In this document: positions 1,528-4,900 of the stretch, piece by piece
Layout: the number at the start of each line of letters is the position of its first letter
How positions within the stretch are numbered: position 1 is the first letter of the stretch
NCBI RefSeq assembly: GCF_045679555.1
Contig: NC_092122.1
Coordinates: 14,499,506 to 14,563,505, forward strand
Direction: 5' to 3'
Length of the DNA: 64,000 bases
Source of the DNA: Salvelinus alpinus
Taxonomy: Eukaryota > Chordata > Actinopteri > Salmoniformes > Salmonidae
Position numbers and translations under genes: made by a program
The notes under the pieces: model-generated
Databases searched by the model: none
What the model was told of the DNA's origin: nothing
The model's input: only the letters and a program-made list of their open reading frames with translations

Positions 1528-1968
1528 CAGTAGGTTCTAACCTGGCCCTCTCTTCTTTCCTCAGATCCCTACGTGAAGATCCACCTGATGCAGTTGGTTC
1601 TAACCTGGCCCTCTCTTCTTTCCTCAGATCCATACGTGAAGATCCACCTGATGCAGTTGGTTCTAACCTGGCTCTCTCTTCTTTCCTCAGATCCCTACAT
1701 GAAGATCCACCTGATGCAGTAGGTTCTAACCTGGCCCTCTCTTCTTTCCTCAGATCCATACGTGAAGATCCACCTGATGCAGTAGGTTCTAACCTGGCCC
1801 TCTCTTCTTTCCTCAGATCCCTACGTGAAGATCCACCTGATGCAGTAGGTTCTAACCTGGCCCTCTCTTCTTTCCTCAGATCCCTACGTGAAGATCCACC
1901 TGATGCAGTAGGTTCTAACCTGGCCCTCTCTTCTTTCCTCAGATCCCTACGTGAAGATCCACCTGATG
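1528..1968 (+). repeat. Seven-copy 63-bp tandem repeat of a syt9 intron/exon boundary
   Basis: Seven head-to-tail 63-bp units start at 1528, 1591, 1654, 1717, 1780, 1843 and 1906. Each carries a pyrimidine tract, a splice acceptor TCTTCTTTCCTCAG, and the first 29 bases of the C2B exon. The acceptor AGs end at 1564, 1627, 1690, 1753, 1816, 1879 and 1942. Only the last copy runs into the rest of the exon (CAG AAC GGG at 1969). Units are nearly identical, differing at a few positions such as CAGTAG versus CAGTTG at the unit boundary and single changes within the exon part. Because 63 is a multiple of three, frames through it stay open on both strands, giving spurious periodic ORFs. Confidence 0.95.
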
Positions 1969-4900
1969 CAGAACGGGAAGAGGCTGAAGAAGAAGAAGAC
2001 GACAATCAAGAAGAACACCCTCAACCCTTACTACAACGAGTCCTTCAGCTTTGAAGTGCCATTCGAACAAATCCAGGTAATGGTGTTGTACATCCCCATG
2101 CACATCTTGGGAGTTCTCCATGTTGTTGAAGCATTAAGACTAGATCTAATTGATCTCAGTCATAAACCACTAAGTCAAGTTTTTTTAAAGAATACTTCAA
2201 AAGAAGACATTGAGCCAACACTGAGACAAGTGACAAGGAGAATGTGTTCAAAACTTGTGGCTACTGAGAGTGATTTGGTGGCTTAAAATTAGCGTGTGAA
2301 TGTGTGGTCCTTAGCCTGTACAGGATAATCGGTTTCAGGCTCTATTCATCATGGGCCCGATTCAGGCTTAGTAAGTGTACGCCTTCCTATGCGCTTCTCA
2401 GTAGTTGGTATTCAGACTTAATGCAGGCATGTAATGCATTAGTGTACCTTTAATTTTATCGACAGACTAAAGTACATTGAAGGAACGGGCTCAGAATATA
2501 GGGAACAATGAAAGAAAGCCATCTACAGTTGAAGTCGTAAGTTTACAAACACTTAGATTGGAGTCATTAAAACTTGTTTTTTAACCACTCCACAAATTTC
2601 TTGTTAACATACGATAGTTTTGGCAAGTTGGTTAGGACATCTACTTTCTGCATGACACAAGTAATTTTTCCAATAATTGTTTACAGACAGATTATTTCAC
2701 TTATAATTAATTGTATCACAATTCCAGTGGGTCAGAAGTTTACATACACAAAGTTGACTGTGCCTTTAAACGGCTTGGAGAATTAGGGGTGTACCTGTGG
2801 ATGTATTTCAAGGCCTACCTTCAAACTCAGTGCCTCTTTGCTTGACAACATGGGAAAATCAAAAGAATTCAAAAGACCTAAAAAAAAAACACCATAAAAA
2901 AGCCAGACTACGGTTAGGGACAAAGATCGTACCTTTTGGAGATATGTCCTCTGGTCTGATGAAAGAAAAATAAAACTGTTTGGCAATAATGACCATCGTT
3001 ATGTTTGGAGGAAAAAGGAAGAGGCTTACAAGCCGAAGAACACCATCCCAACTGTGAAGCACGGGGGTGGCAGCGTCATGATGTGAGGGTGCTTTGCTGC
3101 AGGAGGGACTGGTGCACTTCACAAAATAGATGGCATTATGAGGTAGGAAGATTCTGTGGATATATTGAAGTAACATCTCAAGACATCAGTCAAGAAGTTA
3201 AAGCTTAGTCGCAAATGGGTCTTCCAAATGGACAATGACCCCCAGCATACTTCCCAAAGTTGTGGCAAAATGGCTTAAGGACAACAAAGTCAAGGTATTG
3301 GAGTGGCCATCACAAAGCCCTGACTTCAATCCCATAGAAAATGTGTGGGCAATCCCTTTTTCCTCCAAACATAGCGATGGTCATTATGGCCAAACAATTA
3401 TATTTTTGTTTAATCAGAACAGAGGACATTTCTCCAAAAGGTACGATCTTTGTCCCCATGTGAAGTTGCAAACCGTAGTCTGGCTTTTTTATGGCGGTTT
3501 TGGAGCAGTGGGTTCTTCCTTCCTGAGTGGCCTTTCAGGTAATATCGATATAGGGCTCGTTTTACTGTGGATATAGATACTTTTGTACCTGTTTCGTCCA
3601 GCATCTTTACAAGGTCCTTTGCTATTGTTCTGGGATTGATTTGCACTTTTCGCACCAAAGTACGTTAATCTCTAGGAGACAGAACGCCTCTCCTTTCTGA
3701 GCGGTATGACGGCTGCGTGGTCCCATGGTGTTTATACTTGCATACTATTGTTTGTACAGATGATTGTGGTAACCTCATGCGTTTGGAAATAGCTCCCAAG
3801 GATGAACCAGACTTGTGGAGGTCTACAATTATTTTCTCTGAGGTCTTGGCTGATTTCTTTTGATTTTCCCATGATGTCAAGCAAAGAGGCACTGAGTTTG
3901 AAGGCATGCCTTGAAATACATCCACAAGTACACCTCCAATTGACTCAAATTATGTCAATTAGCCTATCAGAAGCTTCTAAATCCATGACATTTTCTGGAA
4001 TTTTCCAAGCTGTTTAAAGGCGCAGTGAACTTAGTGTATGTAAACTTCTGACTAACTGGAATTGTGATACAATCTGTCTGTAAACAATTGTTGGAAAAAT
4101 TACTTGTGTCATGCAGAAAGTAGATGTCCTAACCGACTTGCCAAAACTATAGTTTGTTAACAAGAAATTTGTGGAGTGGTTGAAAAATGAGTTTTAATGA
4201 CTCCAATCTAAGTGTACGTAAACTTCCGACTTCAACTGTATATGCATATTTGTCTCAGTTTCAGCACCAACTGGTAGATAAAAAAAATACTCTGATCTTG
4301 TAGATTATTTAAGCAAATAATAGCGTTAGGAAAGTATGTATGAATCATATAAAACAGGTTTGGAGCGAGTTTACGCACAAAATATATTGATGAATCAAAA
4401 ATACATATTGTAAAAGTTGACACATTCAAGTTCAATCCATTCATTATTTGAAGGTGGAAATAGGTGTACTATAGGGGTTGAACAGTAGTCCTAGAAATCT
4501 ACCCTGATCCTCACTAATCGTGGAACTGTATGACAACGGTCCAGTCATTGTGAACCATGCACCAGGTTCCAGGTTTAAACTGCTACGTGTGGTCTGAGTT
4601 CCATAATGATCCAAGTAGGCTACATGTCCCAAATTATTGCACAATGTTAGCCTATTATGATCCACTAATGCTAGCGACACTTAGGAACAACTACACGGAC
4701 ATGACAGAGGAAAGAAAAGTAAACGGAATGGAATTGAATCATTCAAAATGTAGGCAGCAAATTTAAGGAAACTAAAGGAAACTACAGTTACAAATGTGCA
4801 AAAAGCCTGGGTATATAATTAAAACCTTCTAAAGCACATACATCAAATTGGCAGATTCGGCCCTACAGAAAGCCTGTAGCTTGGGTCTCCAAATTGTATC

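What the first reader, a model, noticed from the sequence alone, without database searches (positions are those of the whole stretch)
1528..1976. Seven tandem copies of a splice acceptor plus exon start in syt9
A 63-bp unit spanning the pyrimidine tract, AG acceptor and first 29 exon bases is repeated seven times, giving seven near-identical competing acceptors (AG ends 1564 to 1942 every 63 bp). The unit keeps the reading frame, but in-frame TAG codons at 1720, 1783, 1846 and 1909 mean that only the last acceptor gives an open C2B exon; using acceptors 1-3 would insert 51 codons and then stop. Transcripts choosing upstream copies would be truncated within C2B, so the locus may control functional syt9 level by acceptor choice, or be a recent tolerated expansion.
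Basis: partly seen in the sequence, partly recalled or inferred. Interest (0 to 1): 0.72.

Follow-up and report, generated by a model that had tools for sequence, protein, structure and literature searches.

The report
Seven-copy splice-acceptor minisatellite in synaptotagmin gene
In what is probably a salmon-family fish, the point where an intron ends and an exon of a synapse gene begins is repeated seven times in a row; it looks like a tolerated repeat of a kind already reported in lancelets and in a trout gene, and the gene's twin elsewhere in the genome has only two copies, which makes a natural experiment on how cells choose a splice site.

Summary
A 63-bp unit (branch-point-like TTCTAAC, pyrimidine tract, AG, exon start) stands in seven copies at 1527-1971. 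Only the last acceptor (AG 1941-1942) gives an open C2B exon; the other six meet an in-frame TAG. The gene is a complete eight-exon synaptotagmin, and its neighbours fit syt9. New here: the duplicated (ohnologous) locus on contig C11 carries the same unit with the same edges, only twice. The two proteins differ at 1 of 416 residues while flanking intron differs by 5-8%, so both genes look maintained. Only acceptor 7 is followed within 100 nt by a purine-rich, enhancer-like stretch. Best reading: a 'mirage' minisatellite, a tandem repeat of an intron-exon boundary, known from amphioxus genes, where splicing is reported undisturbed. A close precedent exists in rainbow trout: the start of irak3 exon 5 is repeated four times just upstream of the exon. 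Most likely tolerated; dosage control by acceptor choice is possible but unsupported. No RNA or other individuals were available. New member of a known kind.

The parts
1527..1971 (+). 63-bp tandem array, seven units plus the closing GCAG
   Evidence: TRF and direct comparison
1563..1564 (+). acceptor AG 1; reads 52 codons, then TAG at 1720
1626..1627 (+). acceptor AG 2; reads 31 codons, then TAG at 1720
1689..1690 (+). acceptor AG 3; reads 10 codons, then TAG at 1720
1752..1753 (+). acceptor AG 4; reads 10 codons, then TAG at 1783
1815..1816 (+). acceptor AG 5; reads 10 codons, then TAG at 1846
1878..1879 (+). acceptor AG 6; reads 10 codons, then TAG at 1909
1941..1942 (+). acceptor AG 7, the only one giving an open exon
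1913..1919 (+). branch-point-like TTCTAAC of copy 7 (A at 1918, 24 nt before the intron end); the same in each of the seven units
   Evidence: sequence; role inferred
1594..1596 (+). TTG in place of the in-frame TAG at the junction of copies 1 and 2; a second one at 1657-1659
1943..2076 (+). seventh of eight coding exons, first part of C2B after the split codon; its 45 residues are identical to Syt1 in the PDB
1975..2016 (+). purine-rich GAA-repeat stretch, enhancer-like; first GAAGAG begins 35 nt after acceptor 7
   Evidence: enhancer role inferred
1719..1724 (+). donor-like GTAGGT 28 nt after acceptor 3; the same at 1782, 1845 and 1908, and at 1530 before acceptor 1
   Evidence: no sign that it is used
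7303..7509 (+). last coding exon (rest of C2B), TAG at 7507-7509

Best explanation
This is a minisatellite that happens to straddle an intron-exon boundary (a 'mirage'). Shown: the unit runs from an intronic GCAG to an exonic GCAG, so a first duplication at this 4-base microhomology would give exactly the observed edges; the ohnolog has two units and this locus seven. Inferred: the two-copy form arose once, before or during divergence of the ohnologs, was kept uniform by conversion or unequal exchange, and grew to seven here. Because each unit brings its own branch-point-like site, pyrimidine tract and AG, intrinsic acceptor strength should be nearly equal. I infer that acceptor 7 is used in most transcripts because it alone lies next to the exon body with its GAA-rich enhancer-like stretch and makes a normal 134-nt exon with the donor at 2077. 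Use of acceptors 1-6 would leave a stop 165-354 nt before the last coding-exon junction, which should lead to nonsense-mediated decay (the rule is recalled): a small, tolerated loss.
For: Array anatomy. Same unit and edges, two copies, in the ohnolog, both identical to window copy 7. Both ohnologs encode a complete 416-residue protein; of 11 codons that differ, 10 are synonymous, so this gene has been kept working over the time the two have diverged. Several other minisatellites of the locus stand in both ohnologs at different numbers (52 bp 17.1 v 2.1; 47 bp 30.1 v 14.0; 50 bp 2.4 v 9.4; 25 bp 8.8 v 2.6), so copy-number drift is ordinary here. Six purine-rich hexamers that I chose occur 15 times in the 100 nt after acceptor 7 and 0 times after each of the other six. 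A designed library found no order preference between two tandem 3' splice sites of equal strength (passages of PMC6783452), which leaves context to decide. Amphioxus mirages are reported not to disturb normal splicing (passages of PMC3087553 and PMC3902484).
Against: No RNA was seen. The hexamers were my own choice, not a published enhancer set; counted to 134 nt, acceptor 6 also reaches 13. The coding record averages over the age of the genes, and the growth to seven copies may be too young to show in it. The two C11 units are identical over 63 bases although 3.3-5.0 differences would be expected at flank rates (Poisson P 0.036-0.007); this needs homogenisation, constraint or a younger origin. 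Some arrays of the locus stand in only one ohnolog (21 bp in C37; 67 bp in C11), so a shared origin is not certain. In trout irak3, which has a similar boundary repeat, some transcripts do use acceptors upstream of the usual AG (section 15 of PMC6763605), though the parts that I read do not tie them to the repeat. Copy number could be misassembled.
Confidence: 0.76

Rival explanations
1. Poison-acceptor switch: upstream acceptors are used on purpose to send part of the transcripts to decay, setting syt9 level; more copies mean more decay.
For: Every upstream acceptor leads to an in-frame stop 165-354 nt before the last coding-exon junction. The duplicated acceptor is in both ohnologs and its unit is identical between them despite 5-8% flank divergence. 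[quoted passage not shown] In C. elegans a minisatellite is over-represented near alternatively spliced regions (abstract of PMC4039745).
Against: The stop is simply the intronic TAG carried into the unit, in frame because 63 is a multiple of three. Two of the six junctions have lost it (TTG). The enhancer-like stretch favours acceptor 7. Other arrays of the locus also differ in number between ohnologs without spanning an acceptor.
Confidence: 0.1
2. Damaging expansion: the early acceptors capture most splicing, so this ohnolog is becoming a weak or dead gene, covered by the C11 copy.
For: Six decoys of near-equal strength precede the true site; a second intact gene could cover a loss.
Against: The coding sequence of this copy shows no decay: no stop, no frameshift, 1 residue of 416 different from C11. 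Order alone gave no preference between tandem 3' splice sites in PMC6783452.
Confidence: 0.08
3. Assembly artefact: the copy number, or the array itself, is wrong.
For: Tandem repeats are often misassembled; PMC3087553 reports a mirage aberrantly assembled in a genome draft. Copies 5-7 are identical.
Against: Copies 2, 3 and 4 carry different substitutions in register, and a separate locus has the same repeat twice. The exact number seven stays unproved.
Confidence: 0.05
4. On origin only, and compatible with the best explanation: independent duplications of the same segment in each ohnolog, guided by the same GCAG microhomology, instead of one shared event.
For: Identical units within C11 and between the loci suggest youth. 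The 21-bp unit of the window is single-copy in C11 and about seven copies here, so arrays do arise on one side.
Against: Several other arrays of the locus stand in both ohnologs, which makes shared ancestry the simpler reading. Conserved minisatellite positions in two irak3 genes of trout (section 13 of PMC6763605) point the same way.
Confidence: 0.25

Closest known systems
Rainbow trout irak3 and irak3-like (PMC6763605; sections 13 and 15 and passages read)
   Same: A salmonid with two closely related gene copies; [quoted passage not shown] the intron-4 motif of its Table 2 (4 and 5 repeats in the two genes) appears to me to end in a pyrimidine-rich stretch plus AG before that exon start; minisatellite positions are said to be conserved between the two genes.
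   Different: Not named a mirage there; shorter exon part (15-17 v 29 nt) and a unit of about 40 bp; effect of that repeat on splicing not stated in the parts read, although other upstream acceptors are used in some irak3 transcripts.
'Mirage' minisatellites of amphioxus (Adh3, TnC, globins BflGb6 and BflGb9, PGBD5), PMC3087553 and PMC3902484 (passages read)
   Same: Minisatellite-like tandem duplication of an intron-exon boundary including splice signals; BflGb6 likewise repeats the 3' end of an intron with the 5' part of the exon; copy number varies (6 and 3 units in its two haplotypes); copies partly homogenised.
   Different: Fish gene; unit shorter than in BflGb6 (63 v 150-160 bp) but within the Adh3 range (10-72 bp); the comparison here is between duplicated loci and not haplotypes; splicing not tested here.
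Intron gain by tandem duplication across an acceptor (potato RdRp gene, PMC4974935, passages read)
   Same: The duplicated segment crosses the end of an intron and the start of an exon and inherits branch site, pyrimidine tract and acceptor.
   Different: There a cryptic donor was activated and a new intron formed. Here a donor-like GTAGGT exists in most units, but the next AG ends only 35 nt on, and no new intron is evident.
Alternative tandem 3' splice sites coupled to nonsense-mediated decay (general class, recalled)
   Same: Several competing acceptors, all but one leading to an early stop.
   Different: No transcript evidence; the competing sites are near-identical repeat units.

Membership tests
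Mirage minisatellite | Tandem repeat whose unit spans an intron-exon boundary | tested here: met
   38 intron and 25 exon bases per unit (29 exon bases with the closing GCAG), seven units
Mirage minisatellite | Units carry splice signals | tested here: met
   AG, pyrimidine tract and TTCTAAC in 7 of 7 units
Mirage minisatellite | Length instability | tested here: inconclusive
   7 v 2 copies between ohnologs; no haplotypes available
Mirage minisatellite | Homogenisation of copies | tested here: inconclusive
   Copies 1, 5, 6, 7 and both C11 copies identical; a young origin would look the same
Mirage minisatellite | Normal mRNA splicing undisturbed | not testable with these tools
   No RNA data; intact coding sequence is indirect support
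Intron gain by tandem duplication | A new functional intron formed between copies | tested here: inconclusive
   Donor-like GTAGGT at 1719, 1782, 1845, 1908, only 35 nt from there to the end of the next AG; no RNA
Acceptor choice coupled to decay | Transcripts using the stop-bearing acceptors exist and are regulated | not testable with these tools
   Only the potential is shown

The most novel reading that the evidence does not exclude
A duplicated poison acceptor arose before the two ohnologs parted and was kept in both, with copy number (two v seven) setting what share of synaptotagmin transcripts is sent to decay: a tandem-repeat dosage dial built from whole 3' splice sites.
Probability: 0.07. 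Interest if true: 0.78.

Novelty: new member of a known kind. Interest (0 to 1): 0.37.

Why it matters
Two intact, near-identical genes in one nucleus differ in having two or seven near-equal 3' splice sites before the same exon. That is a ready-made test of how the spliceosome chooses among repeated acceptors and whether exon enhancers protect a gene from decoys. Together with the irak3 case in trout it suggests that boundary-spanning minisatellites may recur in salmonid genes, where short-read annotation could easily miss or misread them.

Tried and rejected
Search of plasmid records found nothing, as expected for a fish gene. RNA folding of 1500-2076 gave less structure than shuffles (z +2.86; 100 of 100 shuffles folded at least as well), so a structural switch has no support. 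A genome-wide rate of acceptor-spanning arrays was wanted and not obtained. Control: of the 12 matches other than this locus and C11, six became loci (L003-L008); in 6 of these 6 TRF finds no array at the matching acceptor; the acceptor itself was displayed for 4 (L004, L005, L007, L008), because my motif hit another exon in L003 and L006; the other six matches were not examined. The fifth protein was read from the wrong strand, matched nothing and is not used. One search used one wrong exon edge; one search corrects it. The C11 letters printed with the donor-like search are wrong through an index slip and are not used.

That was wrong: the trout irak3 paper had been listed and I had not opened it; some searches showed it to be a close precedent. 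The paper searches show capped lists (for example 20 of 105, 20 of 144, 15 of 26) of an open-licence library, so I claim no absence from print. Searches (enhancers; salmonid ohnologs) gave listings that I did not use. PMC3039753 (passages) concerns a minisatellite in a transcription start region, not a boundary repeat.

Full report
WHAT IS THERE. The window holds a 63-bp unit in seven head-to-tail copies at 1527-1971 (TRF score 848, 97% match, 0% indels). Each unit reads GCAG, then TAG or TTG, GTTCTAACC, a pyrimidine tract ending in CAG, then exon bases up to the next GCAG; the AGs end at 1564, 1627, 1690, 1753, 1816, 1879 and 1942. In-frame TAGs at 1720, 1783, 1846 and 1909 close every reading that starts at acceptors 1-6; only acceptor 7 opens into the C2B exon 1943-2076.

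WHERE IT IS. The window is G000:C37:14499506-14563505 of a 2.37-Gb genome in 928 contigs. With upstream DNA the gene resolves into eight coding exons and 416 residues; with the edges that I chose all seven introns are GT/AG. The exon with the array is the seventh, after an intron of 7,182 nt to the first AG or 7,560 nt to the last. Its 45 residues are identical to synaptotagmin-1 in the PDB, and the last two exons together match the C2 domain. Downstream lie a FAD-binding piece fitting cyb5r2 and liprin-beta-like exons fitting ppfibp2, which cover most of the recalled liprin-beta probe but not its residues 232-289 and 310-483. That these genes neighbour SYT9 in humans is recalled.

THE TWIN LOCUS. 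Search of the whole genome gave 14 matches, the best after the window itself being C11:31102230-31102488. Over 88.5 kb of chained alignment the two loci are 88.4% identical (some chained blocks are themselves repeats), which I take for an old ohnolog pair. C11 has the same unit with the same edges, 2.1 copies; both its units equal window copy 7 letter for letter. Flanking intron differs at 43 of 815 aligned sites upstream and 33 of 419 downstream. The coding sequences differ at 12 of 1251 bases, in 11 codons, 10 of them synonymous. Both genes therefore look maintained. Six of the twelve other matching places were fetched; none of the six has an array at the matching acceptor by TRF.

ORIGIN. 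The unit starts at an intronic GCAG and ends before the exonic GCAG, so a first duplication can be explained by this 4-base microhomology (sequence; mechanism inferred). Four unit positions vary among the seven copies (6, 21, 43, 47). Positions 6 and 43 occur in all four combinations among copies 1-4, which points to exchange among copies or to recurrent change. The locus is rich in minisatellites; several stand in both ohnologs at different numbers, in both directions, and some in one only. Against a simple old origin, the two C11 units are identical where 3.3-5.0 differences are expected at flank rates (P 0.036-0.007). Homogenisation, constraint or separate younger duplications could explain this.

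HOW IT PROBABLY WORKS. Each unit has its own TTCTAAC, whose second A lies 24 nt before the intron end, so the seven look like complete 3' splice sites of near-equal intrinsic strength (inference; no splice-site score was computed). In a designed library, tandem 3' splice sites of equal strength showed no order preference (passages of PMC6783452). What differs is context: in the 100 nt after the acceptor, six purine-rich hexamers of my choice number 15 for copy 7 and 0 for each of copies 1-6, and the highest purine count in a 40-nt window is 34 against 19-22; within 134 nt acceptor 6 also reaches 13. I infer dominant use of acceptor 7, with leakage removed by decay. A donor-like GTAGGT follows acceptors 3-6 by 28 nt; with 35 nt to the end of the next AG an intron between neighbours is unlikely, though skipping a unit is conceivable.

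WHAT IT IS CALLED. [quoted passage not shown] PMC3902484 adds TnC and PGBD5 (passage). The nearest case in a fish that I found is rainbow trout irak3: in both gene copies coding sequence is repeated in introns, the first 15-17 nt of exon 5 standing four times directly upstream of exon 5, with minisatellite positions conserved between the two genes (section 13 of PMC6763605). Some irak3 transcripts use acceptors upstream of the usual AG and run into early stops (section 15); the parts that I read do not link this to the exon-5 repeat, but it is a caution against assuming that such repeats are silent. The present array meets the anatomical criteria of a mirage; the RNA criterion was not testable.

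VERDICT. Real, well anatomised, and best seen as a tolerated mirage minisatellite in a fish gene. The contrast of seven copies with two in an otherwise near-identical twin gene is the interesting part. Control of dosage by acceptor choice remains possible at low probability.

Noticed in passing
33858-34076 and 47708-47858: The window's other two large minisatellites (25 bp x 8.8; 21 bp x 7.2) begin about 41 and 43 bp upstream of acceptors of the ppfibp2-like gene on the minus strand; in C11 they have 2.6 copies and a single copy. All three large arrays of the window are thus at or near acceptors. Outside the window, two large arrays in introns of the same synaptotagmin gene end roughly 1.4 and 0.9 kb before the next acceptor; I mapped no exons around the remaining ones.
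   Followed up: partly
47708-47858: The 21-bp unit is single-copy in C11, where it is followed by a partial repeat of its first bases (ACAGCC), a possible seed for the expansion on C37.
   Followed up: partly
2526-4238: A stretch in the next intron that is absent from C11 (alignment resumes 12 bases on), with open frames that look like Tc1-type transposase fragments (recognised from recall): a probable transposon insertion after the loci parted.
   Followed up: no
1427-2005 (-) and 1455-2054 (+): Open frames of 192 and 199 residues run across the array in other frames, because 63 is a multiple of three; not evidence of a gene.
   Followed up: no
L004 1669-1819, L005 1345-1476: Two other synaptotagmin-like loci carry a four-base repeat about 25-30 nt beyond the donor side of the matching exon.
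   Followed up: no
upstream of the window on C37, window coordinates -44192 to -39108: Arrays of 38 bp x 70 and 39 bp x 63 upstream of the gene's first coding exon, against about 2 and 4.5 copies of similar units in C11.
   Followed up: no
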